NCBI RefSeq assembly: GCF_902705855.1
Contig: NZ_CACSIJ010000001.1
Span: forward strand, 659,381-720,741
Direction: 5' to 3'
DNA: 61,361 bases
Source of the DNA: Zhongshania aliphaticivorans
GTDB lineage: Bacteria > Pseudomonadota > Gammaproteobacteria > Pseudomonadales > Spongiibacteraceae
Made by a program: the position numbers and the translations under genes. The notes beneath the pieces were generated by a model. The model did not search any database, was not told where the DNA came from, and saw nothing but the letters and a program-made list of their open reading frames with translations. Shown here in pieces: positions 1-25,238 of this stretch (positions within the stretch are counted from its first letter, which is position 1; the number at the start of each line of letters is the position of its first letter).

Positions 1-1307
1 AAAATACCAGCTGACTCTAAAGTGATACGAGCAGCATCCGACAAGGTATTACCGAGATTCAAACCCAGTAACGGCTCAGTAAGCGACCCCAGTACGCCAG
101 TGGGCAGTAACCCAGTAGCAAGCCCATTATTCAGTATAAAGGCCAATCGTCCAAACCCGCCTTCGGCCTTAAGACCATAGTACCCCGCCACCCATTCCAG
201 CTTGTCAGACATTGGCGTCTCTGAATTCGAGAGGATCTGAAGTTCAATGGTCTCCTGATCATTATACTGGTCATAGACGAAGAAAGCGGAACGATCCTCA
301 TCAGTTGAATCGTAGTCAAACTGCCCCCAGTCAACGTCTGCCAACTGATCAGAGTAGATAAATTTGATATCTACAGGACCGGGACGCCACTCAAAGACCG
401 CGCCATACATGGTGTTAATTGTGGCGTTACCACCTTCATAGTTGGTATGGGTATCGCGATCAGGCTCGTCAACTTCAGCGCCCGCACCAAACACAAGAGA
501 AGGACGGGTATTTTCCTGTACCAACGAATTACCATTGAACTGATTCACATAAGAACCAATCAACGTCACGCTAAAATCTTCTAGGAAGTCCCACTTAATT
601 TTAGCACGCCCACCTTCAGAGAAATCTTCTCGCCAGGTTCGCTTCTCGCCGTTACTAAAGTTTTGACCATAATTTTCGTGAGTATCTTTAAACCCAGAAA
701 GCGTAAATCCCAAACCCTCAACACCGGGCACATCTACGCCGATAAACGCCTGGTATTCCGCAGTATCGTAGTTGCCTTGTACATATTTTAGATTCCCCAC
801 AAACTCATCAATCGGCGGATCTTCGGTTGTAATATTGATCGCACCCGCAGTCGCGTTACGACCAAAAAGCGTGCCTTGCGGCCCCTTCAACACCTCTACG
901 CGCTTTACTGGGCCTAGGGAATCTTGCTTACCCTGACTGGCAGGGATATTAATTCCGTCGATATAGGTCGCCACACTTGGATCCGCATTCGGCAAAAAAC
1001 CTTCACTACCTACACCCCGGAGGTAGATCAATGTGTATCCATAAGTATAAGTAAAGGTCAGTCCGGGCGTGATTTTTTGAAGATCAGCGGTATCTTCAAT
1101 ATTGAACGCGTCCAGCTTTTCACTGGAGAAAGCTTGAATCGTAATGGGAATATCTTGTGCATTCTCCTCACGCTTTTGCGCAGTAACCGTAACCTCTTCA
1201 AGCAAGCGGTTCGACGCACGCGACTTCGCATCTTCTTGCAACTGATCTGCTAAAGCGGTATTAGAGAAGGCGACAGCAACGGCCGCCGAAAGAATTTGTC
1301 GTTTCAT
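1..1307 (-). CDS. TonB-dependent outer-membrane receptor (partial, C-terminus beyond window)
   Basis: The reading frame is open from an ATG at 1307 to the window edge, about 435 residues. The product starts with a signal peptide (MKRQILSAAVAVAFSNTALA), followed by a TonB-box-like segment (LLEEVTVTAQKREEN, about residues 35-49). The plug domain includes YLRGVGSEGF, VATYIDGI and the signature RVEVLKGPQGTLFGRNATAG near 140-160. The rest is the start of the beta barrel. The style is that of the large iron-independent receptor group common in sphingomonads and marine gammaproteobacteria, which often take up hydrophobic or aromatic substrates. It follows the meta-cleavage operon on the same strand but has its own promoter, which shares a 28-bp element with that operon. 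The substrate is therefore inferred to be an aromatic or terpenoid compound rather than a siderophore. Confidence 0.93.
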   Translation of the reverse strand, partial: MKRQILSAAVAVAFSNTALADQLQEDAKSRASNRLLEEVTVTAQKREENAQDIPITIQAFSSEKLDAFNIEDTADLQKITPGLTFTYTYGYTLIYLRGVGSEGFLPNADPSVATYIDGINIPASQGKQDSLGPVKRVEVLKGPQGTLFGRNATAGAINITTEDPPIDEFVGNLKYVQGNYDTAEYQAFIGVDVPGVEGLGFTLSGFKDTHENYGQNFSNGEKRTWREDFSEGGRAKIKWDFLEDFSVTLIGSYVNQFNGNSLVQENTRPSLVFGAGAEVDEPDRDTHTNYEGGNATINTMYGAVFEWRPGPVDIKFIYSDQLADVDWGQFDYDSTDEDRSAFFVYDQYNDQETIELQILSNSETPMSDKLEWVAGYYGLKAEGGFGRLAFILNNGLATGLLPTGVLGSLTEPLLGLNLGNTLSDAARITLESAGI

Positions 1308-1385
1308 AATTATCTCTTCAAATTTGTTAAAGCTAATTATTGTTACTTTAATGCGCTTTGTATGGCTCAAAAAAACAACCATCAT

Positions 1386-1431
1386 ACAAACCGTGTAAAC
1401 GCATCGTAAGTTATGGAAATTTTTTAGTCAA
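1386..1431 (-). promoter_or_regulatory. Promoter with shared 28-bp element, upstream of receptor gene
   Basis: On the minus strand a -35 TTGACT (1426-1431) is separated by 17 bp from a -10 TACGAT (1403-1408). The segment 1386-1413 is identical over 28 bp to 11972-11999, where it has the same position relative to another -35/-10 pair. The identity runs from just upstream of the -10 box to about 17 bp past it, the usual place for a repressor operator over the transcription start. It would give a leader of about 90 nt before the receptor ATG. The promoter boxes are read by eye. Confidence 0.7.
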
Positions 1432-1494
1432 GAACTCTCATCAAAATGAGAAGAGAATTAACAAGTTTCTCTTCTCATAATAAATGTAGCCGCT

Positions 1495-3348
1495 CTATTC
1501 CATTGTTAGAATTGAGCTAATTTCTTCCAAGATTGCAGGGTCATCTATGGTAGCTGGGACCTTATACTCATCACCATTAGCGATTTTCTGAAGCGTAGCG
1601 CGCAAAATTTTACCGGATCGCGTTTTAGGTAAACGCTTAACCACCCGCGCCTGTTTAAAAAATGCCACCGGCCCAATTTGCTCGCGAACTAAGGCAATCA
1701 CTTCTTGAACGATGATTTCTTCGCTGCGTTCCACACCGGCATTCAGCACCAATAAGCCAATCGGAATCTGCCCTTTCATCTCATCGTTAATACCAAACAC
1801 CGCGCATTCAGCTACGTCTTTGTGCGCGCTAAGCACCTCTTCCATCTGCCCTGTAGATAAACGATGCCCCGCCACGTTTATCACGTCATCGGTGCGGCTC
1901 ATGATGTGGACATAGTCTTCACTGTCGATAAAACCCGCATCGCCGGCATTGTAGTAACCGGGGTACTCAGAAAGATATTTATCAATAAAGCCCTGATCGT
2001 TATTCCACAAACTTGGCAATGTGCCCGGCGGCAGCGGTAAACGAACCGCCAAAGCGCCCATTGTGCCAGCTTCTACCGTATGTCCCGCTTCATCTAGCAC
2101 GACCACATCGAAGCCCGGCACGGCCTTGCCAGAGGAACCATATTTAACCGGAAACAAACCTAAACCTGCGCAGTTTGCCACCGCAGGCCAACCCAATTCT
2201 GTTTGCCACCAGTGATCTATCACCGGAATATTTAATTGGCGCTCAGCCCACTGAATAGTATCGGGATCTGCCCGCTCGCCAGCCAAAAATAATTGCTGCA
2301 AGCTGGAGAGATCAAAATCCCTAGGGCCAAGTCCATTAGGATCTTGCTGTTTAATAGCCCTAATTGCAGTCGGGGCGGTGAACATGGCCTTTACTTTATG
2401 GCGCTCAATTAAACGCCAGTACGATAGGGCATCCGGTGTGCCGACGGGCTTGCCCTCAAACATAATTGCCGTCGCGCCGCGAATAAGGGGGCCGTAAACA
2501 ATATAGGAATGCCCTACCACCCAACCAATATCTGAGGCGGCCCAAAACACATCACCGGGATTGATGCCGTAGATATTTTCTAGGCTCCAATTCATTGCCA
2601 CCATGTGGCCGCCGTTGTCGCGAATGACGCCTTTAGGATTCCCCGTGGTGCCAGAGGTGTAAATAATATATAGCGGATCAGTTGCCGCTAAGGGAACACA
2701 GTCAACGGCTTCGCCACCCGCCTCAGTTTCCACCCAATCTAAATCCCGACCTTCCTGCATCGCGGCAAGCAATTGCGGGCGCTGTAAGATTACACATTTA
2801 AGCGGTTTGTTCTGTGCCCGCTCAATGGCCTCATCGAGCAAAGGCTTATAGGCCACCAAGCGGCCGGGCTCTATGCCGCAGGAAGCAGAAATCACGACCT
2901 TGGGTTTGCAGTCATCAATACGTGACGCTAATTCTGCCGCTGCAAAACCACCGAACACCACCGAGTGAACGGCGCCAATGCGCGCACAAGCCTGCATCGC
3001 GATAGCAGCTTCCGGCACCATGGGCATATATATTACAACCCTATCGCCCTTCTCAACGCCCATAGAACGCAGGGCTCCGGCAAAGCGCGACACTCGATCA
3101 AGCAAGGCTTGGTAAGACCAGTGCTCTACCGTGTCAGTAACGGGACTATCATAAATAATCGCACTCTGTTCGCCTCGGCCAGCGGCCACGTGGCGATCCA
3201 AACTATTAAAGCAGGTGTTGCACACACCATCGCTGAACCATCTATACAAAGGAACTTTGCTATCATCTAAGGTAAGCTCGGGCTTGCTAAACCAGTCTAT
3301 ACCCTCGGCAGCCTTTGCCCACAGGCCAATATTCTCATCGTGATTCAT
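1495..3348 (-). CDS. prpE: Propionyl/acetyl-CoA synthetase-like acyl-CoA ligase (PrpE type)
   Basis: This 617-residue protein is an AMP-forming short-chain acyl-CoA synthetase. The N-terminal acetyl-CoA-synthetase cap is followed by the P-loop motif YTSGTTGNPKGV near 230-241, the WWQTELGWP segment near 380 and the C-terminal catalytic lysine motif KTRSGKILRATL near 580. Sequence style (SVVFGGFAAAELASRI, DVFWAASDIGWVVGHSYIVYGPL) is that of PrpE. It is the last gene of the ring-cleavage operon, 36 bp after the hydratase gene. Its job there is inferred to be activation of the short acid released by the C-C hydrolase (isobutyrate if the substrate is p-cumate), or of acetate or propionate. Substrate specificity cannot be read from the sequence. 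Confidence 0.88.
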   Translation of the reverse strand: MNHDENIGLWAKAAEGIDWFSKPELTLDDSKVPLYRWFSDGVCNTCFNSLDRHVAAGRGEQSAIIYDSPVTDTVEHWSYQALLDRVSRFAGALRSMGVEKGDRVVIYMPMVPEAAIAMQACARIGAVHSVVFGGFAAAELASRIDDCKPKVVISASCGIEPGRLVAYKPLLDEAIERAQNKPLKCVILQRPQLLAAMQEGRDLDWVETEAGGEAVDCVPLAATDPLYIIYTSGTTGNPKGVIRDNGGHMVAMNWSLENIYGINPGDVFWAASDIGWVVGHSYIVYGPLIRGATAIMFEGKPVGTPDALSYWRLIERHKVKAMFTAPTAIRAIKQQDPNGLGPRDFDLSSLQQLFLAGERADPDTIQWAERQLNIPVIDHWWQTELGWPAVANCAGLGLFPVKYGSSGKAVPGFDVVVLDEAGHTVEAGTMGALAVRLPLPPGTLPSLWNNDQGFIDKYLSEYPGYYNAGDAGFIDSEDYVHIMSRTDDVINVAGHRLSTGQMEEVLSAHKDVAECAVFGINDEMKGQIPIGLLVLNAGVERSEEIIVQEVIALVREQIGPVAFFKQARVVKRLPKTRSGKILRATLQKIANGDEYKVPATIDDPAILEEISSILTME

Positions 3349-3384
3349 TATTATCTCCCAGCCAAATACGTAGCAGTCAAAACA

Positions 3385-4164
3385 CTATATGAAATCGAGC
3401 GCCAAGCTACCAATTCCAGATATGTCTAAGGACATTTTGTCTCCGGGTTTTACATACTCTAGTGGCACGAGAGAGCCGGATAAAATGATATCGCCTTTGC
3501 TTAAGCTGATACCATATTCACCAAGGGTATTAGCCAACCACGCCACACAGGTGAGTGGATTACCCAAGGCCTCTGCGCCGGTGCCAAAACTGAGCTTTTC
3601 ACCGTTTTTCCACACCTGCATTTCGCAATTAATTAAATCTACTTGTTTGGGGTCTATCGCGGCGGCAGAGTTAATCGCAAAATAACCGCAGGAGGCATTG
3701 TCGGCCACGGTGTCTTGGATTTTAATTTTCCAGTCAGCGATACGAGAATCAACAATTTCAAAGCACGGCATTACCGCCTCTGTTGCCGCTAATACGTCCG
3801 CCTCGGTAACGCCCGGCCCCTTGAGGTCACTATTCAATAGAAAGGCAATTTCACCTTCGGCGCGCGGTGCAATCATATTACTTAGAGACAGCTCACCGTC
3901 GCAGATCATTTTATCGGTCAAAAAACCAAAATCCGGCTGTCGCACATTGAGCATAGACTGCACAGCATTGCTGGTAACACCAATTTTTTTGCCGATCAGT
4001 TTCTCACCATCAGCCTCGCGCATCGCCAACATATTCAACGATACGCGATAGGCGTCATCAATACTGATATCAGGATAGCGCGTAGTTAGAGGCGACACCG
4101 CCTTGGCCTCGCGCAAAGAGCGATATAACTCGGTACTAATATCCTGCAATTGCTGCTGATTCAT
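3385..4164 (-). CDS. 2-hydroxypenta-2,4-dienoate hydratase (2-oxopent-4-enoate hydratase)
   Basis: The 259-residue product has the length and motifs of the MhpD/XylJ/CmtF family: GKKIGVTS near 58, the metal-binding region RAEGEIAFLL near 100-110, and EIVDSRIADW near 138. These enzymes add water to 2-hydroxypenta-2,4-dienoate to give 4-hydroxy-2-oxovalerate, the substrate of the aldolase encoded earlier in this operon. The related 4-oxalocrotonate decarboxylases share the fold. The presence of a C-C hydrolase, and of the aldolase and acetaldehyde dehydrogenase, makes hydratase the better call. The gene follows the dioxygenase beta subunit gene by 47 bp. Confidence 0.88.
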   Translation of the reverse strand: MNQQQLQDISTELYRSLREAKAVSPLTTRYPDISIDDAYRVSLNMLAMREADGEKLIGKKIGVTSNAVQSMLNVRQPDFGFLTDKMICDGELSLSNMIAPRAEGEIAFLLNSDLKGPGVTEADVLAATEAVMPCFEIVDSRIADWKIKIQDTVADNASCGYFAINSAAAIDPKQVDLINCEMQVWKNGEKLSFGTGAEALGNPLTCVAWLANTLGEYGISLSKGDIILSGSLVPLEYVKPGDKMSLDISGIGSLALDFI

Positions 4165-4211
4165 ACTTGCTATTCCAATTACTCGTTATGAAATGTATGT
4201 AAAAAAATAAC

Positions 4212-4724
4212 TTACAAAATAATGCTGATCTTTGCCTGTGGCCGCAAACCATCAAGCGCCAAAGAGCACGCTTTTTTACAAATTCGCAATTGACCTTCTA
4301 TGTCGGCCAACTCATACAAATAGCTACCCATAAACATGTCTGTGCTACCATTTTTTGAACGGTAAATTACAAACGACGCACTCACAGAAAGTCGGCCATT
4401 TTCAAGACTATCATTCACCACAATATTACTAACTACATGCTGAACCTTTGAACGCGGAAACTCGGCATGGCAGGTCTTTTTCTCAAGTCGAGTTACCCGC
4501 TCCTCCATACGACCACGATTATCTGCAATATAGTAAAGATGCTTTGTAGGGTCTGCCTCCGCAGCAGCTATGTCCGTCGGTGGCACATAATAACTTGCAT
4601 CCTCGGTATATAAAGACAACCAGTCTTGCAAGCGCCAGTCGTCCAAACATTTAGCTTCTTCATTCAGCAATTTTTGGATACGAAAATATTGAAACATTTC
4701 TTGCAAATCAGACTCGCTAGCCAT
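4212..4724 (-). CDS. Ring-hydroxylating dioxygenase, beta subunit
   Basis: The 170-residue protein belongs to the SnoaL-like small-subunit family of aromatic-ring dioxygenases. Characteristic features are the N-terminal helix with LLNEEAKCLDDWRLQDWLSLYTEDASYYVP (given here only as a positional marker: residues about 19-48) and the later FPRSKVQHVVSNI segment near 110. It starts 3 bp after the stop of the alpha-subunit gene, the usual tight pairing of alpha and beta. It has a structural role in the alpha3beta3 oxygenase and no cofactor of its own. The length matches the 160-190 residues usual for the family. Confidence 0.9.
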   Translation of the reverse strand: MASESDLQEMFQYFRIQKLLNEEAKCLDDWRLQDWLSLYTEDASYYVPPTDIAAAEADPTKHLYYIADNRGRMEERVTRLEKKTCHAEFPRSKVQHVVSNIVVNDSLENGRLSVSASFVIYRSKNGSTDMFMGSYLYELADIEGQLRICKKACSLALDGLRPQAKISIIL

Positions 4725-4727
4725 CGC

Positions 4728-5987
4728 CTACTTCTCCTCAAATTCGCTGACACGACGATTCCATTCACGCCAAAATGCGCGCATTTGTAACTCGTCATCA
4801 AATGAGGGAACTGCCGCCTTCATTCCCTTAGAAATATCATTCCACGGCGCATTAGCAGCAGACTTAAATCCGTTCTGGCACTGTTCTAAAGCCTCGACAT
4901 CATCAGGCGTTGCAAAACCGCCAGGGCCAATAAATTCTAGGAAGTTAGATAGGCGATATTCACGGCGCCAATCACTTTCACCCACCACGCCCATTGCAAA
5001 TCCATTCACCATCATTGAGTTTGGTGATGTTGGGTAGAAGGTACGCACCGTAATCGCCATGATGTCATTAACGACCAAGTTGGGAAAAATAATCATATTG
5101 CGGTTTTTAGTTGCAATCTTTTCAGCGGTTTCTGCGCCGACACGCCCCACCAACTCATCGTAAACCTGATCGATTTCTTTCTTTCCGTCTTCTCCCCACA
5201 TAGGTATCCACTGCGCTACCGGACGCCCCCACGGCGCGCTGTACTCAATAACAGCGTGCCCATTCCCTAGATCATAACCTTTGCCAGCAAGGCGAGTTGC
5301 CGTTAAGCTCCCATTGGTATTCATTAAATAATCTAAGTAAGTAGCGTGGGTGGATTCTGCGTGATAACCGTCAACACTGTTTTCGACCAATAGCTTCCAA
5401 TTGGCCTGAATGGAGTATTCTTGGGTGCCACCGATAATTTCCATACCTTGCGCAGACTGAGCGGCAATCACATCCAAATATTCTTTAGAACCCGCCAAAT
5501 AATCCTCAAGAGGCTCCACGTCTTTATTAAAGCAAATGAAGTAAAATCCGGCGTACTGTTCCAATCTTGGCACAGGCCGCAAATTTGATTCGTCGCCTTC
5601 TTTAAAGTCTTTGCTATAAGCATTCTCACCGGAGAGATGCGCTAATTCACCGGTATTTTTAAACACCCAGCCGTGATACATACACTGAAAGGTTTTGGCC
5701 TTGCCGCGTTTCTCTCTACACACAGTAGAGCCGCGATGCGGACAGACGTTAAACAAGGCGCGAATCACATTGTCGCGGCCGCGAACAAATAAAATATTCT
5801 GATCTGCCACCGTGCGCGCCACAAACGCACTGGCTTCCTTCAGCTCAGATTCATGCCCCAAGTACAGCCAGCAATTTTTAAATATTAAATCGCGTTCTTT
5901 CTCGAACACTTCCTGACTGGTAAACGTTTCGCGCGCTACTTTAAAGCGCCCGCCGTCCCGATCATCGATAATATAAGGAGTTTCCAC
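4728..5987 (-). CDS. Ring-hydroxylating dioxygenase, Rieske alpha subunit (p-cumate dioxygenase-like)
   Basis: The product is about 419 residues. The Rieske [2Fe-2S] site is visible as CPHRG near residue 82 and CMYHGW near 102, and the mononuclear iron region as [13 protein letters not shown] near 208. It dihydroxylates an aromatic ring to a cis-dihydrodiol using electrons from a Rieske ferredoxin (9803-10165) and a reductase. Gene context (extradiol dioxygenase, class II aldolase-like decarboxylase, hydrolase) matches the p-cumate 2,3-dioxygenase pathway, but other carboxylated benzenes are possible. Two in-frame GTG codons compete as start. The one at 5987 has GAGGTGG eight bases upstream and is preferred; the other, at 5996, would overlap that ribosome-binding site. 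No ATG is available nearby. Confidence 0.9.
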
Positions 5988-6075
5988 GTCAACCACCTCA
6001 CGCTTTTGGATTTAAGGAATTAATTTTTATTGTCGTACTAAATAATAATAGGACTCTATCTCAGTACTATCATAG

Positions 6076-6807
6076 TCAAAATTTACTACCGCCATCCTTT
6101 ACAACTACCTGTACAGAATGAGCAATATCACTTTCTATATCGTCGTAGGTTAAATACCGCCACATGCGTTCAAACACGCCGACTTTAACTTGTCTGTCTC
6201 GAATCTCATCAAGCGACAGTACACCCTCTTCAGGCTTAAAATTGGCACTGCGTACACTTAACTCTAGCCGCGCAGAGTCCTCTAAAAACCAAGCGTAAGA
6301 CACCGCCTCTTCTATTGATTCACCAACCACTACTGCGCCATTGCCCCGCATAACCAAGGCCGTTGCCGACCCCATCATATCGGCGAGGGATTGCGCGCGT
6401 TCATCGTCACGCAACAATCGCGGATCAGCCCACAGGGGAATATTGTTGGCAAAGTACGCGCTCAAACCATGCCGGCAAGTTGGTGTTAAACCCTGCGTAG
6501 ATAGCGCCATTACCGCTGGCGACATAATGCGGCACACGGCTTTAATTTCTGGGCGACGCTGGTAAATCGCTTGATGAATTCTCACCTCGCCCAGCACGCC
6601 ATCGGGCAAAGGCCCCCTTACCGAAACCGGGGTATTCGCTTCTCCCGCGGCAATGGTGCCCATCGGCTGGGGAGCGCACACCAAAAACTGCTCGTCATCC
6701 ACTCTTACACTGCAGTGACCAAAGGCGTGTACCAAGCCAGCGCGACCCAATGCTCTGGCCCCCATACGCAGCTTGATGTGTTGCGTGTTTATTGCTGTTT
6801 GCGTCAT
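6076..6807 (-). CDS. Class II aldolase/adducin-family decarboxylase (CmtD-like)
   Basis: About 243 residues of the class II aldolase/adducin fold, with segments GLVHAFGHCSVRVDDEQFL near 25-43 and MRGNGAVVVGESIEEAV near 155. In p-cumate degradation a protein of this family (CmtD) removes the ring carboxylate from the yellow 2-hydroxy-3-carboxy-6-oxo ring-cleavage product. The same role is inferred here because the gene sits between the ring-cleavage and lower-pathway genes and no other decarboxylase is present. Some metal-ligand positions look different from sugar aldolases: RHGLSAYF replaces the usual HxH element. The ATG at 6807 is preferred over a GTG three codons upstream. Confidence 0.75.
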   Translation of the reverse strand: MTQTAINTQHIKLRMGARALGRAGLVHAFGHCSVRVDDEQFLVCAPQPMGTIAAGEANTPVSVRGPLPDGVLGEVRIHQAIYQRRPEIKAVCRIMSPAVMALSTQGLTPTCRHGLSAYFANNIPLWADPRLLRDDERAQSLADMMGSATALVMRGNGAVVVGESIEEAVSYAWFLEDSARLELSVRSANFKPEEGVLSLDEIRDRQVKVGVFERMWRYLTYDDIESDIAHSVQVVVKDGGSKF

Positions 6808-6888
6808 GTTTTCCACGTGTCAGTTATTTATTATTTACTCGCGGGAATTGCCTAATCGTAGCCTTAAGCTAAGCTGCGAAACGTGTTA

Positions 6889-7932
6889 TTAACCCGTCGC
6901 ACTCACAGTCTCGGCCGTCGCATTTTCCTTTGCCATTGTTAAGGCCAGGTCTTCAATCATGTCCTCTTGACCACCCACGGTACCGCGACGCCCCAGCTCA
7001 ACCAAAATATCTCTTGCTGACACGCCGTAACGCTGTTCCGCGCGCTTAGCAAATAGTAAGAAGGAACTATAAACACCGGCATAACCGAGGGTTAGCGCGT
7101 CGCGATCAATACGTATTGGACTATCCATCATGGGTACGATGAGGTCTTCCGCCACATCCATAATCTTGTAGAGATCTATGCCGGTCTTCATGCCCATACG
7201 ATTCAATACCGCTACCAAAACCTCTAGCGGGGTGTTGCCGGCCCCAGCGCCAAGCCCAGCTACTGAACCATCAATGCGCGCCGCGCCCGCGTTAATGGCG
7301 GCAACCGAATTAGCCACGCCCATTGCGAGATTGTGATGACCGTGAAAACCAATCTCTACATTGTCTGGCAAGCCGTTTCTCAATGTGGATATCTTCTCGG
7401 TGACTTCTTCTGGCAACATAAAGCCCGCCGAGTCTGTGCAGTAAAGACAGTTAGCGCCGTAGCTCACCATTAGCTTTGCTTGTTCTAATAAGGCGTCTGC
7501 AGAAATCATATGCGCCATCATCAAAAAGCCAACAGTGTCTAAACCCAGCTTTGCTGAGTAGGCGATATGTTGCTGAGATACATCAGCTTCTGTGCAATGA
7601 GTTGCGACTCTTAAGGTACTTACGCCACAGGCCTGCGCCATGCGAATGTGGTCAACCGTACCAATTCCCGGCAATAGCAGGGCCGACACTTTTGCCTGTG
7701 TCATTTTGGGGATAACCGCATTGAGGTATTCTTCGTCGCTGTGCGCCGGAAAACCATAGTTAACCGACGCGCCACCCAAGCCGTCACCGTGAGTGACTTC
7801 TATTAGCGGCATACCCGCAGCGTCTAATGCCGTTGATACCGCAACCATTTCCTCAATGGAAATCTGATGGCGTTTTGAATGCATGCCATCACGCAGGCTC
7901 ATATCATGCAATTTTACAAATTTATTTTTCAT
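6889..7932 (-). CDS. 4-hydroxy-2-oxovalerate aldolase
   Basis: The 347-residue protein shows the DRE-TIM aldolase signature [15 protein letters not shown] at its N-terminus and [18 protein letters not shown] near 195, with [19 protein letters not shown] near 225. It is of the DmpG/MhpE/BphI type and splits 4-hydroxy-2-oxovalerate into pyruvate and acetaldehyde. It normally forms a channelling complex with the acylating acetaldehyde dehydrogenase, which is encoded immediately upstream (7982-8884). The ATG at 7932 has AAAGGTG six bases upstream. A GTG nine bases earlier lies in that ribosome-binding region and is unlikely to be used. Confidence 0.94.
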
Positions 7933-7981
7933 ACTCTGCACCTTTCACTGGTCGGCTATTACAAGTTAGCGGCGTAAATTA

Positions 7982-8884
7982 TTACGCCGTAATAGCACTC
8001 GCTTCCGCGAGCTTTTGGGCAATCATTTCTGCTGTGCGCAATGCTGCCGCCGTCATGATATCGAGGTTACCCGCATATTTGGGCAAATAATCACCGAGGC
8101 CCTCAACTTCCATATACATAGAGACACGCTGGCCATCAAACACCGGCCCGTTCACCAAGCGATAGCCCGGCACATAGCGCTGAACTTCACCTACCATGTC
8201 ATGCACCGATGCGGTAATGGCGGCTTGATCCGCCTCGCCTTCAACCAAGCAGTGAATGGTGTCGCGCATAATGAGTGGTGGCTCAGCAGGGTTAATCACG
8301 ATGATCGCCTTACCCTGTTTCGCGCCGCCTACCTTCTCCACCGCGCTAGCGGTAGTACGGGTAAATTCATCAATATTGGCGCGAGTACCTGGGCCAATTG
8401 AGCGCGAAGATACCGTGGCTATAATCTCGCCGTAACTAACCGCTTGCACCCGCGACACCGCCGCCACCATCGGAATAGTCGCCTGACCACCGCAGGTCAC
8501 CATATTGACGTTTTGAATATCGCTTTGACTTAAGGCATCCAAATTAACGGGAGGAATACAATAAGGGCCAATGGCTGCAGGTGTGAGATCGATCATCGTC
8601 ACCCCAAGCTCATTCAATTTGCGGCTGTTTTCAGCATGAACATAGGCCGAGGTCGCATCAAAGGCGATAGTAATATCGTCCGCTTTAATAAATGGCAGCA
8701 CACCATCGACACCCTCTGCACAGACTTTAATACCCATTTCCGCAGCGCGCTTCAAACCGTCAGACTCAGGATCTATACCTACCATCCACACCGGCTCAAC
8801 CCACTCTGAACGTAGCATTTTCATCAATAAATCAGTGCCGATATTGCCCGGCCCAATAATGACGGCCCTCAATTTCTTACTCAT
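7982..8884 (-). CDS. Acetaldehyde dehydrogenase (acylating)
   Basis: The 300-residue product starts with a Rossmann motif ([14 protein letters not shown]) and carries the active-site cysteine in [12 protein letters not shown] near 135. [12 protein letters not shown] near 175 is also typical of DmpF/MhpF/BphJ. It oxidises acetaldehyde to acetyl-CoA with NAD and CoA and partners the 4-hydroxy-2-oxovalerate aldolase encoded next in the operon. Length agrees with the family (about 300-315). Start and stop are unambiguous, and the gap to the hydrolase gene upstream is 42 bp. Confidence 0.94.
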
Positions 8885-8926
8885 AACTCACCTGCTGTCA
8901 ATTCTTAAATGCTGTCTAGTTGATAT

Positions 8927-9760
8927 TTAAAGAATTAAAAAATTTTTCACTAGCGTTGCGAACTCAATAGGCTTTTCTACCTGCGTCCAATGTCCGCACT
9001 CACCAAAAATATGCAGTTGCGAATTTTTCATTAAGCGGTGTGCTTTGATGGAATTTTCCATAGGCACAATAATGTCTTCACGACCGTGGACCATCAGGGC
9101 TTTATGTTGAATCTGTGCTATTTCAGATTCTGGAATACACAGCCCATTTAATTTTTCTTGCATTGGCTCAGGGAATAATTTTTCGTAAGCCTCTTGATAG
9201 CCAGGGCGAATGCTGGCCTCGTAGCGCGATTTAATAATGTCTTCACTGACCAAATCTTGGCGATAAGCGAAGATTGACATCAGGCTGCGCATTGCATCGA
9301 CCGAGGGTTTGTAACCCCAAATTTCACGCAAACCATCGGTGATATTGAAATGAATACCCGCAGCGCCCATCATTACGAATCGGTCAACACGCTCGCCGTG
9401 GCGTGCGGCCATGGCAAGACTAATTGCACCACCAAAGGAGTTACCCACAAAATGCGCTTCATCAACCTTTATCGCGTCCATGAACTGGCACATAAACCGC
9501 AACCAGTTATCTAAATTGTATTCAAAGCCGTCTGGGTTGTCGGTGTACCCAAAGCCAATGACGTCCGGTGCAATCACGTGAAAATCATTTTCTAAAGCTG
9601 GAATAAGCAAACGCCAATTAGCGTAAGCCGTTACGCCTGGGCCTGAACCATGTAATAAAATTACGGTGGGATTACTGCGGTCACCCGACTCTAAATAGTT
9701 CGCTTCGTAGCCGTCTGCCAATTCAACTCGTTTGCCCATTTCCGGATTCTGCGTACTCAC
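8927..9760 (-). CDS. Alpha/beta hydrolase, meta-cleavage product hydrolase
   Basis: The 277-residue enzyme has the oxyanion motif LLHGSGPGVTAYANWR near 35-50, the nucleophile elbow GNSFGG near 108, the acid in HGREDIIVP near 228 and the histidine in ECGHWTQVEKP near 257. This is the pattern of BphD/CmtE/TodF hydrolases that break the C-C bond of 2-hydroxy-6-oxo-hexadienoates into 2-hydroxypentadienoate and a carboxylic acid. In this operon the acid released would carry the ring substituent; with a p-cumate substrate it would be isobutyrate. The ATG at 9760 follows the ferredoxin gene by 42 bp. Confidence 0.92.
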   Translation of the reverse strand: MSTQNPEMGKRVELADGYEANYLESGDRSNPTVILLHGSGPGVTAYANWRLLIPALENDFHVIAPDVIGFGYTDNPDGFEYNLDNWLRFMCQFMDAIKVDEAHFVGNSFGGAISLAMAARHGERVDRFVMMGAAGIHFNITDGLREIWGYKPSVDAMRSLMSIFAYRQDLVSEDIIKSRYEASIRPGYQEAYEKLFPEPMQEKLNGLCIPESEIAQIQHKALMVHGREDIIVPMENSIKAHRLMKNSQLHIFGECGHWTQVEKPIEFATLVKNFLIL

Positions 9761-9802
9761 ATATCACCCCACTGTTATGAATTAGCTAAATTTAATTTTC
9801 TA

Positions 9803-10165
9803 TTAATCTGGTTTTTGAAACCGCTTAACACGCGGATTAATGTAGAGGTCTCCGTCGATCAGCTGTGTTTCAAAGCTTCTTAGTGGCACCCGACACGGCA
9901 TAGTCAATGCTGCCCCTGTGCGCACATCAAATGTGCCGTTATGCCAAGCGCATTCAAGAATATGGCCGCTCAATTCGCCTTCGTCATAAAACGATGCCGC
10001 GCCATGGGTGCAGCGATCTACCGCAACAAAAAATTCGCCCTCGACATTAAAAATAGCGAGATCCATCCCACCGGGATGCTTTGCGGTGCCTATTTCGCCA
10101 ACCGGCACTTCGTCTGCTTTGCAGAGAAAGGCCCAGTCATCGCTACTTGCAATTACGTCGTTCAT
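9803..10165 (-). CDS. Rieske [2Fe-2S] ferredoxin of a dioxygenase system
   Basis: A 120-residue protein with the two Rieske half-motifs CTHGAASF near 50 and CAWHNGTFD near 70. It is therefore a small Rieske ferredoxin of the BphF/CmtAd type that carries electrons from a reductase to the oxygenase alpha subunit. The ATG at 10165 has AAGGA correctly placed; the upstream in-frame GTG is less likely. The second half-site reads C-A-W-H rather than the usual C-P-x-H, which is a common variant. No reductase gene is in this operon; the nearest is at 28099-29166. Confidence 0.9.
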   Translation of the reverse strand: MNDVIASSDDWAFLCKADEVPVGEIGTAKHPGGMDLAIFNVEGEFFVAVDRCTHGAASFYDEGELSGHILECAWHNGTFDVRTGAALTMPCRVPLRSFETQLIDGDLYINPRVKRFQKPD

Positions 10166-10188
10166 TATTCCTTCCACACTCTTATTAT

Positions 10189-10962
10189 TTACAGCATCGT
10201 ACTGCCGCCGTTAACACTAATAACCTGACCGGTTACAAATGCGGCTGCATCGCTTGCTAAATACGCCACCATAGACGCAACTTCTTCCACTTTTGCAGCT
10301 CGGCCGACAGGAATCACACGAAGAAATTCTTCTGCTGCCTGCGGATCATTTTCTACAAAATTAGCAAGCACAGCAGTTTGTACCGCACAAGGTGCTACCG
10401 TGTTAACAGTAATATTGTCAGCGGCAAATTCTCTTGCCAAACCAGTAGTCATGCCGTGAACACCGCCTTTGGCGGCGTTATAGGCTGCATGCGCCCACAA
10501 GCCATTGCGCACAGAATCTGCACCAATATTGATGACCCGACCAAAACCCTGTTCTTTCATTTTGGGTAGCACACACCAACTACACCAAAGGGCAGTCCAC
10601 AGGTTCCTGTCTACCGTTTGCATCAGGGTTTCTGGCGTGTGTTCAAGAAAGGGACGAATAATTCCGCCGCCCGCGTTATTCACCAGAATATCTACCCGTT
10701 GGTATGTCGTCAGGGCAAAATCTAACAGCGCTTCTGCACCGGCCTGCGCCGACAAATCGGTGGCATAAGCCGATACCGTATAGTTAAGCGCGCTCATTTC
10801 AGCACTTAGGTCTGATAATTTCTCCTGCGATAAATCGCTGAGCACTAGCGCCACACCGGTATCCGCAAGTGCGATGGCAATGGCCTTACCGATATCACTG
10901 CAAGCACCAGTTACAATGGCGACCTTGCTGGCCGTAATGTCTTTCATATCACTCATTAACAT
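10189..10962 (-). CDS. SDR-family cis-dihydrodiol dehydrogenase (CmtB-like)
   Basis: The 257-residue classical short-chain dehydrogenase has TGACSDIGKAIA near 18-29 for NAD binding, NNAGGG near 95 and the catalytic YNAAKGG near 163, ending GQVISVNGGSTML. Its start overlaps the end of the extradiol dioxygenase gene by 14 bp, implying translational coupling. In this position it should oxidise the cis-dihydrodiol made by the dioxygenase to the catechol cleaved by its overlapping neighbour. The SDR family is broad, so the substrate rests on operon context. Alternative ATG codons lie 6 and 15 bases downstream of the start given. Confidence 0.85.
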   Translation of the reverse strand: MLMSDMKDITASKVAIVTGACSDIGKAIAIALADTGVALVLSDLSQEKLSDLSAEMSALNYTVSAYATDLSAQAGAEALLDFALTTYQRVDILVNNAGGGIIRPFLEHTPETLMQTVDRNLWTALWCSWCVLPKMKEQGFGRVINIGADSVRNGLWAHAAYNAAKGGVHGMTTGLAREFAADNITVNTVAPCAVQTAVLANFVENDPQAAEEFLRVIPVGRAAKVEEVASMVAYLASDAAAFVTGQVISVNGGSTML

Positions 10963-11875
10963 CTGGCCCCGCTATTTCACCGCGCTTACAAAATTCGGGC
11001 TTTGGCATGCCGCCCCACAAATCCATGGTTTGCGCGCTGTTTTCTAACATACGTGCCTCACGGGGATCTTCTTCTGGGAACTCTTCCATGCCAAAACTGA
11101 ATTCGGCAGTCATACCATCTGGATCTAAGAAATAAAGAAACACACTGCCAGATGGCATGTGACGACCGGGGCCGAAAACAATATCCACCCCCGCATTAGT
11201 TAGTCTATTTCTAGCACGGCCCACATCATCAATTTCACTGACCATAAAGTTAACGTGGTGCAAACCTGGGGTGTCGCTTTTCACCATCGCAAAGCTATGA
11301 TGAAAGGGATTGGGGTAGCAACGTGCCCATACTGCTTTATCAACAACAAAGTCTGACGGCAGCAAACCGAAATCCTTGTTCATTACCGCCCAAGCCTCAT
11401 CTAGCTTGTCAGTACGGATAACGACATGACCCAAACGTTGAATTTTTGCCAATGATTGATCTAGCGCTTGCGGCGGCTCAATCATGTTGTCGATGTACTC
11501 GAATGTAACACCTGTGACTGGCTCGAATACTCGGAAGCCCCGAGCAATATTCAAGAATCCAGTTTCTGTAGCAGGAATATCCCAGCACTCATAAGCCCGC
11601 GACTGAAAGTGCGCTTTCGCCAAATCTAAGTCCGCCGAGGACGCGACCTGAAAACAGACTCTACGCAGCCCCGCCGTTTCGCTCTGATAAAGCACCAGAC
11701 TCATCGCGTACTGATCACAGCGCAAACCGACCTTCTCACCCTGTTGTTCAACATGCACATTTAAGCCGAGTAATCCGCTATAAAAGCCAATTGATTTTGT
11801 TATATCCCTTACATTTAACGCCACATACGCAAGGCGCTTATACATAAAGGGAAGGCTTTGTAATGGGATGCTCAT
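10949..11875 (-). CDS. Extradiol ring-cleavage dioxygenase, VOC superfamily (CmtC-like)
   Basis: The 308-residue protein has two VOC modules. The catalytic second module provides the 2-His-1-Glu iron ligands: H in RLGHVVIR near 150, H in GLHHVNFM near 212 and E in MTAEFSFG near 263. The C-terminal tail with FPEEDPREARML and WGGMPKP resembles 2,3-dihydroxy-p-cumate 3,4-dioxygenase and its relatives more than catechol 2,3-dioxygenase. It opens the catechol next to a hydroxyl to give a yellow 2-hydroxy-6-oxo-dienoate. It is the first gene of the operon, with the promoter at 11972-12017 about 100 bp upstream. Confidence 0.9.
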   Translation of the reverse strand: MSIPLQSLPFMYKRLAYVALNVRDITKSIGFYSGLLGLNVHVEQQGEKVGLRCDQYAMSLVLYQSETAGLRRVCFQVASSADLDLAKAHFQSRAYECWDIPATETGFLNIARGFRVFEPVTGVTFEYIDNMIEPPQALDQSLAKIQRLGHVVIRTDKLDEAWAVMNKDFGLLPSDFVVDKAVWARCYPNPFHHSFAMVKSDTPGLHHVNFMVSEIDDVGRARNRLTNAGVDIVFGPGRHMPSGSVFLYFLDPDGMTAEFSFGMEEFPEEDPREARMLENSAQTMDLWGGMPKPEFCKRGEIAGPDVNE

Positions 11876-11971
11876 AATTCTGCCCTGCTCATTTTCTTAT
11901 CGTTAAGGTCCGAGAAGCGTTTCGATAGCAATATGTGGTGCACCATCGCGCCTGTATATTTCGACCAACAA

Positions 11972-12017
11972 ACAAACCGTGTAAACGCATCGTAAGTTAA
12001 ATAAAGGATAAGGTCAA
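11972..12017 (-). promoter_or_regulatory. Promoter with shared 28-bp element, upstream of meta-cleavage operon
   Basis: On the minus strand a -35 TTGACC (12012-12017) and a -10 TACGAT (11989-11994) are 17 bp apart. The 28 bp at 11972-11999 are identical to 1386-1413 upstream of the receptor gene, and the spacing to the -35 box is the same, while the sequences on either side differ. This is what a common operator placed over two promoters would look like. The remaining intergenic DNA between 11876 and 12183 holds no gene that I can see. Confidence 0.72.
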
Positions 12018-12183
12018 CATTAACCAACAAATATTATGTCACTTTAAATAGGCCCGAATTATCGTGTAGTTTTAGACGTATTTACGGTTAAGAATGTAGC
12101 ACACTTTACGCATACTACATAATCGAGAAAGGCTCTCTTAGACAAGCTTGGAACTGAAGTCACACAGTAAAAAAATCTAGCGC

Positions 12184-12669
12184 TTAGCCTGCAGCTAATA
12201 AATTCGCCACGTCAATCAACTCACTTGGCTTGCTATCAAAACCCATGGGGCTAAACCAGCTACGCCCCGTCACGCTGTGTTGACGAGCATATTGTATTAG
12301 CAATACCGAGGATTCACGTTTAAAGCCGTCACTCACATCGCATTGCGCCATCAAGCGCTCTAATGCAAAGGCCACCTTAGCAGTGTCATTTGCTGCCATC
12401 GCAGCGCGAAGGTCTATTAGCTTTCCATCATTTAGCGACTCCGACTCAGCCAAGTCAAGCAAGCGCGTAGCGCATGCTATTAAATGGCGAGCGTTATAAT
12501 CGACAAGCTCACGCTCACGACCATCCTGCGCCATCAGGGCCGCAATATGACCAATCAATAACTGGCTTTGCTCCTGCGCCATAGACTCGCTAGCGGGAAT
12601 CGCCGGTAAAATAATATCTGTCATCGCACGCATCATGGTACTTAAGCGCAACTGGGATGATGGATTCAT
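12184..12669 (-). CDS. Small helical protein, partner of the phosphotransferase (DUF6285-like)
   Basis: A helical 161-residue protein with no catalytic motif that I recognise; it has YNARHLIACATRLLDLAES near 72 and resembles the DUF6285 proteins that accompany APH-type phosphotransferases. The ATG at 12669 is chosen because GAGGAGG lies just upstream, inside the last codons of the phosphotransferase gene, and the two genes are one base apart. It probably works with that kinase-like enzyme. The family name is from memory and moderately certain. Confidence 0.6.
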   Translation of the reverse strand: MNPSSQLRLSTMMRAMTDIILPAIPASESMAQEQSQLLIGHIAALMAQDGRERELVDYNARHLIACATRLLDLAESESLNDGKLIDLRAAMAANDTAKVAFALERLMAQCDVSDGFKRESSVLLIQYARQHSVTGRSWFSPMGFDSKPSELIDVANLLAAG

Positions 12670-12670
12670 A

Positions 12671-13822
12671 TTATGCCTCCTCAAGTAAGCAGATAAGTTG
12701 ATCCACAAAGGCATAGCCCGCCGCCGTTAACCAGCTCAACAATATATCTTGGTGGCTATGTTTATTGCCGGCGGTGCGCGCCGATGTCGCCAAACAGATC
12801 ACTACGCATTTATAAACGCTTAGTACTTGATAAAAATGCAGTGCTTTTTGATCCACCGCACGCCCCGTCATCTCGGTATACCGCGCGCACAATTCACTTA
12901 GCGGCATTAAGCCAGAGGCAAGCACCTCACCACTGCTGGTTTTGCCTTGATGACATGCAATCCAGCCAAGGTCTTCGTGATAGTCGCCAATATGGGCAAG
13001 CTCCCAGTCGAGAATGGTGGTGATCTTTTGGCTTTGTTCATCGAACAGGTAATTACCGGTTCGATAATCCGCATGCACAATCACTAGCTCCGAGGTCTCT
13101 GGCAGATTGTCGCGCATCCAGCGCTCCGCCAACCCCATAATCGGCACACCTTCAATAGCGTCGTCTTGCCATGCGCTGGCCCACCAATTCAGCTGCCATC
13201 TCGCCGCCTGAAACCTGTCCTGATCCGGGGTCTGAAATACCTGACCATCATCAAAGTCGGGACTTATTTCGTGCATTATCTGCAGGTATTTCAAAAACTC
13301 CTTCGCCAAACCTTCGCGAAAGGGCTCACTGATTAGCGTGCCCAAGCCCGAGACATTACCCGCGTTATCGCTGGGCTTCGTCACACCACCGATGAAGCCA
13401 GTGATCAAGGCGGGCCGCCCCAAACGCTCCCCCGTTAAATCTGCCCACAGCACCGGTGGCACAGGTAATTTGTCTGCCACCGCACGCATCACGCCAAACT
13501 CTTTAGCGCGATCGGTTACCACCGCACTTTCCAATGGGTCCATACGGAGCACGCATTTTCTAACGAAGGTATCGTCGGAATAGAGATCGAAGACAAACTG
13601 CTCCTTCGAGGCCCCGCCACCCATCCGCTTAAAGCCCTCAAGTCGGGGGGCAACAACGCCCTCTTCCGCTAAAAATCCCAGCAGGATTGGCGCCATTTGC
13701 TCCGGGCTTCGTGGCTCGTATACACCCTTTTCTCTCGCGCTAAAATTATTCTGCAACATGGCTTGGATACTGGGTTCAATATCCACCCCCGATGCTAGCG
13801 CCGTCGCTACACTTAACTTCAT
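12671..13822 (-). CDS. APH-type phosphotransferase family protein (ACAD10-like)
   Basis: A 383-residue protein kinase-like fold phosphotransferase. The catalytic loop VIVHADYRTGNYLFDE near 250 carries the HxDxxxxN signature, and the metal motif is ILDWELAHIGD near 275. Relatives, including the N-terminal part of human ACAD10, are associated with acyl-CoA metabolism and are thought to phosphorylate hydroxy-acyl compounds. The gene lies between a lipocalin-like protein gene and the small partner gene, all tightly spaced on the minus strand. The ATG at 13822 has AGGTGG eight bases upstream; two upstream GTG codons are rejected. Substrate unknown. Confidence 0.82.
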   Translation of the reverse strand: MKLSVATALASGVDIEPSIQAMLQNNFSAREKGVYEPRSPEQMAPILLGFLAEEGVVAPRLEGFKRMGGGASKEQFVFDLYSDDTFVRKCVLRMDPLESAVVTDRAKEFGVMRAVADKLPVPPVLWADLTGERLGRPALITGFIGGVTKPSDNAGNVSGLGTLISEPFREGLAKEFLKYLQIMHEISPDFDDGQVFQTPDQDRFQAARWQLNWWASAWQDDAIEGVPIMGLAERWMRDNLPETSELVIVHADYRTGNYLFDEQSQKITTILDWELAHIGDYHEDLGWIACHQGKTSSGEVLASGLMPLSELCARYTEMTGRAVDQKALHFYQVLSVYKCVVICLATSARTAGNKHSHQDILLSWLTAAGYAFVDQLICLLEEA

Positions 13823-13834
13823 TTTCGTCACCAC

Positions 13835-14764
13835 CTATTTATTATTTACGTATTCGATAAGGCTGTTCATCCACAGCACTTCGCAACAACCACCGCCTTT
13901 CACGCCATCGATATGCGCAACAATGGGTGATTCAAACAAGGTAATCATCGGGTCTGGGCAAAGCGGGAAGGTTGCGTAGGCAACGCCTTGAAAGGTAGTG
14001 GTTCGGCCTGCAGAGTCGTAAATAGTGGCGTGCACGGTGCGAGTTTTTAAATCGTCATTTATTTCTAAATCAATATCGACATCAACCACTTGTGCAATGT
14101 GTTGGTCTTTGTCGACAAAGCCGCGAATCAGGGTTTTACCCATCGACTCTAACTTCCAAAAATGGACACCCAGCTCTGGCCCAGCTTGAGCGTGAACCCA
14201 CTTCCAATGCTGATTCAAACCCCAGTCACGAACACCCCAAGAGTGGTCGCGCTGCGCATAGCCTTGCAAGGTTATTTCACGACCGCCCACTTTAACGTAG
14301 CCAGACACCAGACCATGCTGCTCAAAGCGGTCATGCGCTATCCACTGCGGGCAACCGTCTTTATGGCTGCTGTAAGCGTAAGCAGGCTGAGTGGCAGTGA
14401 AATTATATTCAATATCGAATAGCTCAGATTTGTAGCTGATCGAGGCGGTTTCTAATAACTCACCCAGACGGAAATGCAGATTCTTAACCCGCCAATCAAA
14501 GAAGTCGGCATCCGGCGACATCGCAATGCCGTCAAATTTTTCCAGTAACGGCTCTGGCCCAATACCGGGGCCATAAAGCGTGACCGCGCTACCCGCAAGG
14601 CCTTCGCCATTAATCCAAGTATAAATAAACCCGCCAATTTGCTCTTCGGGGATTTGAATCATATACGCCATCGACTCACGGGCCAGCGGCCCTGTTCCGA
14701 GTTTATGGCGATTATCGTGTATGGGGTCTAAAGCGCGAATATCGGTGGTTAGCGTTCTTGTCAT
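13835..14764 (-). CDS. CrtC/lipocalin-like protein (DUF7064/7065-type)
   Basis: The 309-residue protein is rich in beta-strand-like segments and contains GYAQRDHSWGVRDW near 168-181 and HWKWVHAQ, marks of the hydroxyneurosporene-synthase-like (CrtC/AttH) lipocalin fold. Such proteins often sit near SDR, acyl-CoA and phosphotransferase genes in terpenoid and steroid degraders, but their reaction is mostly unknown. The stop codon lies 12 bp before the phosphotransferase ATG, so the three minus-strand genes from 14764 to 12184 form an operon. The fold assignment is by motif and the DUF number is from memory. Confidence 0.65.
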   Translation of the reverse strand: MTRTLTTDIRALDPIHDNRHKLGTGPLARESMAYMIQIPEEQIGGFIYTWINGEGLAGSAVTLYGPGIGPEPLLEKFDGIAMSPDADFFDWRVKNLHFRLGELLETASISYKSELFDIEYNFTATQPAYAYSSHKDGCPQWIAHDRFEQHGLVSGYVKVGGREITLQGYAQRDHSWGVRDWGLNQHWKWVHAQAGPELGVHFWKLESMGKTLIRGFVDKDQHIAQVVDVDIDLEINDDLKTRTVHATIYDSAGRTTTFQGVAYATFPLCPDPMITLFESPIVAHIDGVKGGGCCEVLWMNSLIEYVNNK

Positions 14765-14988
14765 TAGCCTTTCCCTAAATCAATTATTCTGATCACATCG
14801 TCGACGACGATGACTTAGGTCCAGAATACCAACAGGAGAATTAACAACAATGGACTGATTTCAGCTAAGCAACAGCGGCATGCACAGCCCGCTCAAAGGA
14901 ATGAGCTTACACATAGGCCTAATGTGGTCTTGCGACCATGACTAGTCACCAAACTCAACACCTTGCTCAAACAAGGTGTGCGCTTGTG

Positions 14989-15180
14989 TCACGAACTCTT
15001 CTTGAGCGCCTCTGGATCTTCGCGAACAACACTGATCAAGCAGACCGCCAAAAGCAAGGTCGCGAAAACCCCCGATCCCCCAGCGACGCCAGAGGGTAGA
15101 AACGCATCGCGCCCAAACACAATCAAAATCGCATTGGCGAACATAGCAACAACGCCAACCAGCGCAGTCAAGCCTCCCAA
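14989..15180 (-). CDS. Small membrane protein, hypothetical
   Basis: A 63-residue product with two hydrophobic helices (about residues 3-22 and 33-51) and a charged C-terminus (VREDPEALKKSS). It would start with TTG at 15180, overlapping the end of the upstream membrane protein gene by 13 bp with GGGAGG-like sequence nearby. I do not recognise a family. The coding call rests on the hydrophobic pattern and coupling to the neighbouring gene; a longer frame on the same strand in this region (14942-15229) looks like a shadow. Confidence 0.4.
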   Translation of the reverse strand: MGGLTALVGVVAMFANAILIVFGRDAFLPSGVAGGSGVFATLLLAVCLISVVREDPEALKKSS

Positions 15181-15611: not shown

Positions 15612-15793
15612 GCTTGCACCCTTTGGTATTTCTATTTATGACACTTGCTCATAACGCAGCTGTGATAACTGAACTCAACTACAACACAGTGCGCTTGAGC
15701 TTATTAGCAGACGGAAGGTGGTACAACTCGTCAAATTGCGCGTCACGCCTATAGCTGGCGCGCCGCCTTTTTGGCGTCGCATACCCGTGATAG

Positions 15794-23845: not shown

Positions 23846-23900
23846 AAATAATCCTTTCAAATTAATGAAATAAAAATCGAAGTACAAAAATTGAGGAGGA

Positions 23901-25122: not shown

Positions 25123-25238
25123 GTCACCTCCTGAACGCACTCACCACCGGTAATACACGCACATACTTTATTTATTGTGCTGGTGAATAATCGCGAGAAT
25201 GAATCTGAAAACCTTCTTATATTTATATGTACTTAAAC

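What the first reader, a model, noticed from the sequence alone, without database searches (positions are those of the whole stretch)
1386..12017. Identical 28-bp operator-like element at two promoters 10.6 kb apart
Positions 1386-1413 and 11972-11999 are identical over 28 bp (starting ACAAACCGTG, ending CGTAAGTTA). In both cases, on the minus strand, they cover the -10 box TACGAT, which lies exactly 17 bp from a TTGACY -35 box in otherwise different flanking sequence. One precedes the TonB-dependent receptor gene, the other the meta-cleavage operon. This ties the receptor to aromatic catabolism and predicts one regulator for both, most likely a repressor blocking the -10 region. No regulator gene lies in 1-12 kb. 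The element does not look like the palindromic CymR operator.
Basis: partly seen in the sequence, partly recalled or inferred. Interest (0 to 1): 0.7.

Follow-up and report, generated by a model that had tools for sequence, protein, structure and literature searches.

The report
Shared repressor site links receptor, ring-cleavage genes
Two far-apart gene sets in a marine bacterium, one headed by an outer-membrane receptor and one for breaking down an aromatic ring, carry the same DNA switch site, most likely read by a repressor whose gene lies just outside the window and which resembles the known cumate repressor CymR.

Summary
The 28-mer occurs at 1386-1413 and 11972-11999 and nowhere else (up to 3 mismatches) in the 3.95 Mb genome. 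Both copies carry TTGACY-17-TACGAT on the minus strand. Beyond 36 bp the two promoter regions show no clear similarity.
It is a conserved operator. All 8 genomes (of 21 in the family set) that hold an ortholog of the extradiol dioxygenase carry a variant at that gene's promoter.
The likely reader is a TetR-family gene 5.8 kb left of the window, with orthologs in the same 8 of 21 genomes. Relatives of this TetR in other bacteria sit near CymR-type operators (21 of 38 loci with the gene, 1 of 38 without), and a matrix built only from the Zhongshania-group sites finds such operators again.
So: a diverged, asymmetric CymR-type operator overlapping the -10 box. Binding, inducer and substrate are untested.

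The parts
1386..1413 (-). operator copy 1 (28-bp identical block) at the receptor promoter
   Evidence: variants in 8 genomes
1426..1431 (-). -35 hexamer TTGACT of the receptor promoter
   Evidence: TTGAC invariant in 9 aligned sites
1403..1408 (-). -10 hexamer TACGAT, inside operator copy 1
1..1307 (-). TonB-dependent receptor, N-terminal part (the gene runs off the window; complete in L003:13238-15688)
   Evidence: In L003 it is followed by a 120-aa protein, ferredoxin reductase, aldehyde DH and alcohol DH
11972..11999 (-). operator copy 2 at the promoter of the meta-cleavage operon
12012..12017 (-). -35 hexamer TTGACC
11989..11994 (-). -10 hexamer TACGAT, inside operator copy 2
10949..11875 (-). 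extradiol (glyoxalase-fold) dioxygenase, first gene of the operon
   Evidence: NCBIfam hits below cut-off
10189..10962 (-). short-chain dehydrogenase (dihydrodiol dehydrogenase-like)
   Evidence: best hits below the curated cut-offs
9803..10177 (-). Rieske-type ferredoxin
   Evidence: below cut-off
8927..9760 (-). meta-cleavage-product alpha/beta hydrolase
   Evidence: below cut-off
7982..8884 (-). acetaldehyde dehydrogenase (acylating)
   Evidence: above cut-off
6889..7941 (-). 4-hydroxy-2-oxovalerate aldolase
   Evidence: above cut-off
6076..6816 (-). class II aldolase/decarboxylase-like protein
   Evidence: below cut-off
4728..5996 (-). ring-hydroxylating dioxygenase alpha subunit
4212..4724 (-). 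ring-hydroxylating dioxygenase beta subunit
   Evidence: below cut-off
3385..4164 (-). 2-oxopent-4-enoate hydratase
   Evidence: 356 bits against a cut-off of 409
1495..3348 (-). short-chain acyl-CoA ligase (propionate/acetate-CoA-ligase-like), last gene of the operon
   Evidence: below cut-off

Best explanation
The 28-bp element is the operator of a TetR-family repressor encoded in the same cluster (L003:7928-8545, 5.8 kb left of the window). The repressor is of the CymR type. Bound as a dimer (inferred), it covers the -10 box and start region of two promoters: that of the ring-hydroxylation/meta-cleavage operon and that of a receptor - ferredoxin reductase - aldehyde dehydrogenase - alcohol dehydrogenase operon. 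An aromatic acid made or taken up by the cell (p-cumate-like; inferred from gene content) would release it and switch on uptake, the electron supply of the dioxygenase, peripheral oxidation and ring cleavage together. Shown by sequence: the element, its uniqueness, its promoter position, its conservation, the co-occurrence with the TetR gene and the kinship to CymR-type operators. Inferred: binding, repression, inducer, what the receptor carries.
For: Only 2 copies in 3.95 Mb. Element at the dioxygenase promoter in 8 of 8 family genomes with the ortholog. Pattern written from those sites and the receptor site: 10 exact sites in 21 family genomes, all in those 8, one of them new, before the reductase/dehydrogenase/receptor set of G019; in 390 genomes of the order at up to 1 mismatch, 9 sites in 7 genomes, all in the window's genus (reversed control 3). 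TetR ortholog at 60% identity or more in the same 8 of 21, in the cluster each time. TetR_N domain above cut-off and a predicted nine-helix TetR fold. Relatives of the TetR: a site of 16 or more of 20 CymR-operator positions in 21 of 38 loci with the TetR, 1 of 38 without, 0 of 190 shuffles. Matrix from Zhongshania-group sites alone on the same 76 loci (1.36 Mb): 6 of its top 20 hits start exactly on sites of 15 or more of 20 CymR-operator positions; 200 column-shuffled matrices give mean 0.035, maximum 2. Literature: CymR site ACAAACAGAC-N6-GTCTGTTTGT, and two such sites in LB400, before cymB and cmtAa (PMC5224996, passages).
Against: No binding or expression data. The element itself is a poor palindrome (6 of 10 arms, a score that 2.3% of window positions reach) and matches the CymR operator at only 11 of 20. 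The TetR is only about 31% identical to the cluster TetR of LB400. A LuxR-family gene co-occurs in the same 8 of 21 genomes, so co-occurrence alone does not single out the TetR. No site with a matrix score above 8 was found before the TetR gene itself. The exact receptor-side copy exists in only 2 of the 8 genomes; in G004, G015, G017 and G018 the reductase operon has no such site. The 6 hits are not independent: L180/L188 and L179/L183 are pairs of close relatives. Of the 38 loci with the TetR, 17 show no CymR-type site at 16 or more of 20.
Confidence: 0.84

Rival explanations
1. The element is bound by another regulator, first of all the cluster's LuxR-family protein (window 24370-25140), acting at both promoters.
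For: The LuxR gene occurs (E 1e-30 or better) in the same 8 of 21 family genomes and has a GerE domain.
Against: Of 80 named loci with the dioxygenase only the Zhongshania marina locus L158 has a LuxR hit, while 38 of the 76 loci outside the group have the TetR, many with CymR-type sites. The loci reach only 10 kb to each side, so a LuxR further away would be missed (it is missed that way in G016, G017 and G019). The element lies over the -10 box and start, where repressors sit; LuxR activators usually bind upstream of -35 (general knowledge). A different motif, TTCGCATGCTTAA-like, precedes the reductase operon in 5 genomes and could be the LuxR's.
Confidence: 0.08
2. The two copies are identical only because one promoter was recently copied from the other (duplication or conversion), with no shared regulation.
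For: The receptor module lies where five relatives have the ligase and tetR side by side, and a ligase 3' remnant marks a rearrangement.
Against: Outside 36 bp the two promoter regions show no clear similarity, and orthologous dioxygenase promoters keep the element while spacer and flanks diverge. G019 also has a second site, at a different gene order and in its own variant.
Confidence: 0.04
3. The conserved block works in the 5' leader RNA (riboswitch, sRNA target) rather than as a DNA operator.
For: About half of the block is expected to be transcribed (inference from the promoter position).
Against: Conservation runs through the -10 box and into the spacer; no Rfam family reaches its gathering score in window 1-16000; TetR-linked relatives carry similar sites.
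Confidence: 0.03

Closest known systems
CymR / CuO operator, cym-cmt regulon (Pseudomonas putida F1, Paraburkholderia xenovorans LB400)
   Same: TetR-family gene in the cluster; one operator type at two promoters; a ring-hydroxylation/meta-cleavage operon with decarboxylase, hydrolase, hydratase, aldolase and acetaldehyde dehydrogenase genes; alcohol and aldehyde dehydrogenases, an outer-membrane protein and a ferredoxin reductase in the same clusters (PMC5224996 passages; loci). The LB400 cmtAa site of that paper was found again at L227:6813.
   Different: TetR only about 31% identical to the LB400 one; operator diverged and asymmetric (11 of 20) and overlapping the -10 box, whereas in the CymR-type relatives printed it mostly follows the promoter; a TonB-dependent receptor where the known clusters have CymD; no p-cymene monooxygenase among the genes I annotated (not searched for genome-wide); inducer unknown.
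TetR/site pairs of Haliea sp. Ww140 (L161) and of three MAG loci (L212, L216, L220)
   Same: Closest TetR relatives outside the group (47-50% identity; clade support 100/99); sites with the core A[CA]AAACAGTGTAA[AC]CG, in Haliea at the dioxygenase promoter.
   Different: Different gene order; in L212/L216/L220 the sites lie between tetR and the dioxygenase alpha gene; no receptor-side copy was looked for there.
PheR of Sphingobium sp. SHPJ-2 (IclR family; PMC13273656)
   Same: One repressor whose deletion raises both a ring-hydroxylation operon and TonB-dependent receptors (passages).
   Different: Unrelated regulator family and operator; in the passages seen, the effect on the receptors rests on transcriptomics.

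Membership tests
TetR-family repressor | N-terminal TetR_N helix-turn-helix domain | tested here: met
   PF00440 41.1 bits, cut-off 24
TetR-family repressor | all-helical TetR fold of about nine helices | tested here: met
   Model pLDDT 86.5, nine helices; the 50 PDB rows shown are TetR-type regulators, TMq 0.43-0.69
CymR-type regulator | encoded with p-cumate-type ring-hydroxylation and meta-cleavage genes | tested here: met
CymR-type regulator | groups with cluster-linked TetRs, that of LB400 among them, apart from other TetRs | tested here: inconclusive
   They share one branch (92/90) with 6 unlinked TetRs and the second-cluster TetR of G004; the tree of 62 rows has long-branch warnings
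CymR operator (CuO) | ACAAACAGAC-N6-GTCTGTTTGT | tested here: not met
   11 of 20 for the window element, 13 of 20 at best in the group; background-level
CymR operator family in the wide sense | operator matrix finds CymR-type sites of relatives in register | tested here: met
   6 of top 20 hits; 0 of 200 shuffled matrices as high
CymR | release from DNA by p-cumate | not testable with these tools
   needs a binding assay
CymR regulon | two promoters with one operator type, one of them serving an outer-membrane protein gene | tested here: met
   window and L003; G019, where the receptor is the last gene of the series

The most novel reading that the evidence does not exclude
The TonB-dependent receptor is the actual importer of the aromatic (or terpenoid-derived) growth substrate. 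In at least two lineages the receptor/reductase/dehydrogenase module has come under the CymR-like repressor independently, each copy matching the operator variant of its own genome, so that a TonB-dependent receptor takes the place of the CymD protein of the classical regulon.
Probability: 0.35. Interest if true: 0.55.

Novelty: new variant of a known kind. Interest (0 to 1): 0.42.

Why it matters
It names a regulator, an operator and two target operons for a ring-cleavage cluster in a marine group that, by record titles, includes MAGs from oil samples, and it makes a testable substrate prediction for a TonB-dependent receptor, a class whose cargo is often unknown. It also shows a CymR-type operator that lies on the -10 box and has little symmetry left, so that neither the palindrome nor the consensus reveals it; only comparison does.

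Tried and rejected
Direct comparison with the CymR consensus: 11 of 20, background level (476 of 122,672 window positions, both strands, score 11 or more); not usable as evidence alone. A 22-bp palindrome register (9-N4-9) was considered first; the 26-bp CymR register (10-N6-10) gives 6-7 of 10 in all six site variants tried and the 9-N4-9 register 4-6 of 9, so I prefer 10-N6-10 without strong proof. The search of the own genome with A[CA]AAACAGTGTAA[AC]CG (the two copies plus one weak site, reversed control 1) is partly circular, because the four outside sites were themselves found with the group's matrix; it is not counted as independent. Autoregulation of tetR: no matrix hit above 8 upstream. 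Rfam scan of 1-16000 at gathering threshold: nothing. My labels 'TBDR2' and 'SDR2' for window 21329-23887 and 24370-25140 were wrong; Pfam shows a SecD/RND-type protein and a LuxR regulator. The ALDH_G019 row was read out of frame and is discarded. Literature (searches; only openly licensed PMC papers are held): no report of this cluster or of a CymR-type regulator controlling a TonB-dependent receptor appeared in the listings; the two papers listed for 'TonB-dependent receptor' with 'p-cumate' (PMC3056050, PMC5501837) were not opened. Seen as passages only: PMC5224996, PMC4349456, PMC1654148, PMC13273656.
Full report
What is there. The 28-mer is exact at 1386-1413 and 11972-11999, part of a 36-bp repeat with 94% identity, and has no third copy within 3 mismatches in the 3.95 Mb genome that holds the window (the window is G000:C1:659381-720741). 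On the minus strand each copy contains TACGAT at 17 bp from TTGACT or TTGACC. Apart from these 36 bp the two upstream regions have no clear similarity (next best match E 0.1).

The operons. The left promoter precedes a TonB-dependent receptor cut by the window edge. Stretch L003 beyond the edge shows receptor - 120 aa protein - ferredoxin reductase - aldehyde dehydrogenase - alcohol dehydrogenase, then, convergent, a TetR-family gene at L003:7928-8545, which is 5.8 to 6.5 kb left of the window. The right promoter precedes extradiol dioxygenase, SDR, ferredoxin, hydrolase, acetaldehyde dehydrogenase, aldolase, decarboxylase-like protein, ring-hydroxylating dioxygenase alpha and beta, hydratase and a short-chain acyl-CoA ligase. 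Of these only the aldolase and the acetaldehyde dehydrogenase pass NCBIfam's curated cut-offs; the other names are by best match. The gene set is that of a p-cumate (cmt) pathway as described for LB400 (PMC5224996, passages); the substrate here is inferred.

Conservation. The family set has 21 genomes. The dioxygenase ortholog (65% identity or more) is in 8 of 21, and the TetR ortholog (60% or more) is in the same 8. TetR lies in the cluster, convergent to the operon: directly after the ligase in 5 of 8 (G012, G015, G016, G018, G019), with other genes between in G000, G004 and G017. All 8 dioxygenase promoters carry a variant of the element with TTGAC at 17 bp, 18 in G019. The pattern TACRNNNCGTYTACACKGTWTGT, written from those sites and the window's receptor site, gave 10 exact sites in 21 genomes, all within the 8 genomes; 1 hit had 2 mismatches and 20 had 3, while the reversed control had 50 hits at up to 3 mismatches. 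The tenth exact site was new: in G019 it lies, with TTGACA-17-TACAGT, about 515 bp before the ferredoxin reductase gene that starts a reductase - aldehyde DH - alcohol DH - receptor series, the receptor being 80% identical to the window's. In 390 genomes of the order at up to 1 mismatch there were 9 sites in 7 genomes, all in the window's genus (reversed control 3). In G004, G015, G017 and G018 the reductase operon has no such element.

Who reads it. From genomes with names, the 80 best of 143 loci with a dioxygenase relative were kept; 4 belong to the Zhongshania group. Of the other 76, 38 hold a relative of the TetR within the locus (tblastn E 1e-6 or better, 100 residues or more). A site matching the CymR operator at 16 or more of 20 is present in 21 of these 38, in 1 of the 38 without the TetR and in 0 of 190 shuffles. 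As a test that does not use the CymR consensus to build the query, a matrix from the Zhongshania-group sites was run over these 76 loci (1.36 Mb): 6 of its 20 best hits start on sites with 15 or more of 20 CymR-operator positions (47 such sites in 29 loci); 200 column-shuffled matrices gave mean 0.035 and at most 2. The 6 include two pairs of close relatives. The two best hits are both in Haliea L161, one just before the dioxygenase gene and one between RHO alpha and the decarboxylase gene. The Haliea, L212, L216 and L220 TetRs are the nearest relatives of the window's (100/99). The Zhongshania-group operator variants follow the TetR sub-clades (G000/G012/G016, G015/G018, G004/G017/G019), as the species tree might also give.

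The element against the CymR operator. Read on its own, the window's element is a weak palindrome (10-N6-10 arms 6 of 10; 7 of 10 in some relatives) and matches the CymR consensus at 11 of 20, both near background. Its left half begins ACAAAC as CymR sites do; the other half doubles as the -10 box, a plausible reason for the lost symmetry (inference). In most of the CymR-type relatives printed the operator seems to follow the promoter rather than cover the -10 box.

Rival regulators. The cluster's LuxR gene co-occurs with the element as well as the TetR does (8 of 21). Among the 80 named loci it was found only in L158, while CymR-type sites go with the TetR; the loci reach 10 kb to each side, so this is not proof of absence. 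I favour the TetR.

History of the receptor operon. In the window's genome the receptor module lies between ligase and tetR. A 177-bp stretch next to tetR (L003:8542-8717) matches G016 at 90% over the last 104 bp or so of the ligase gene and the gap to tetR; the genome's own intact ligase did not match it at E 0.01. The operon is mosaic: its first genes (dioxygenase, SDR, ferredoxin) are nearest G016, its last ones (RHO alpha, beta, hydratase, ligase) nearest G012. The module was thus probably brought in by recombination, perhaps with its own operator (inference).

Verdict. A real, conserved operator with a good candidate repressor; a variant of the known CymR regulon. Binding, repression, inducer and receptor cargo are untested.

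Noticed in passing
G000:C2:24007-24029 (L146:10008) and G012:C19 (L148:8006): A weaker element-like site (2 mismatches to the pattern) about 260 bp before a receptor paralog 75% identical to the window's, with a poorer counterpart at the same place in G012; possible third regulon member.
   Followed up: partly
L085, L147, L084, L152, L154 just before the reductase gene: A different conserved promoter motif (TTGAC ... TTCGCATGCTTAA-like) precedes the reductase operon in five genomes; perhaps the site of the co-occurring LuxR protein.
   Followed up: no
L003:8542-8717: Remnant of an acyl-CoA ligase 3' end next to tetR, 90% identical to G016; with the mosaic operon it points to a recombination event that brought in the receptor module.
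   Followed up: partly
window 24370-25140: LuxR-family gene present in exactly the 8 of 21 family genomes that hold the element.
   Followed up: yes
L080 (G004:C1:3988000-4001000): A second ring-cleavage cluster in G004 with its own TetR (32% identical) between dioxygenase and ferredoxin genes; no element above matrix score 8.
   Followed up: partly
window 12184-14764: A phosphotransferase-like, a DUF7064/DUF7065 and a 176-aa protein form a trio found near this cluster in several related genomes, for example G004, G012, G016, G017, G018 and G019.
   Followed up: no
L003:12759-13121 and window 23901-24272: Two small proteins (120 and 123 aa) without a Pfam match at E 1e-5, one beside the receptor and one beside a SecD/RND-type protein.
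   Followed up: no
L220, L202: MAG records titled Klebsiella pneumoniae carry relatives of this cluster; the labels may be wrong.
   Followed up: no
L154:9555-11998: The receptor gene of the G017 MAG is split into two open frames.
   Followed up: no
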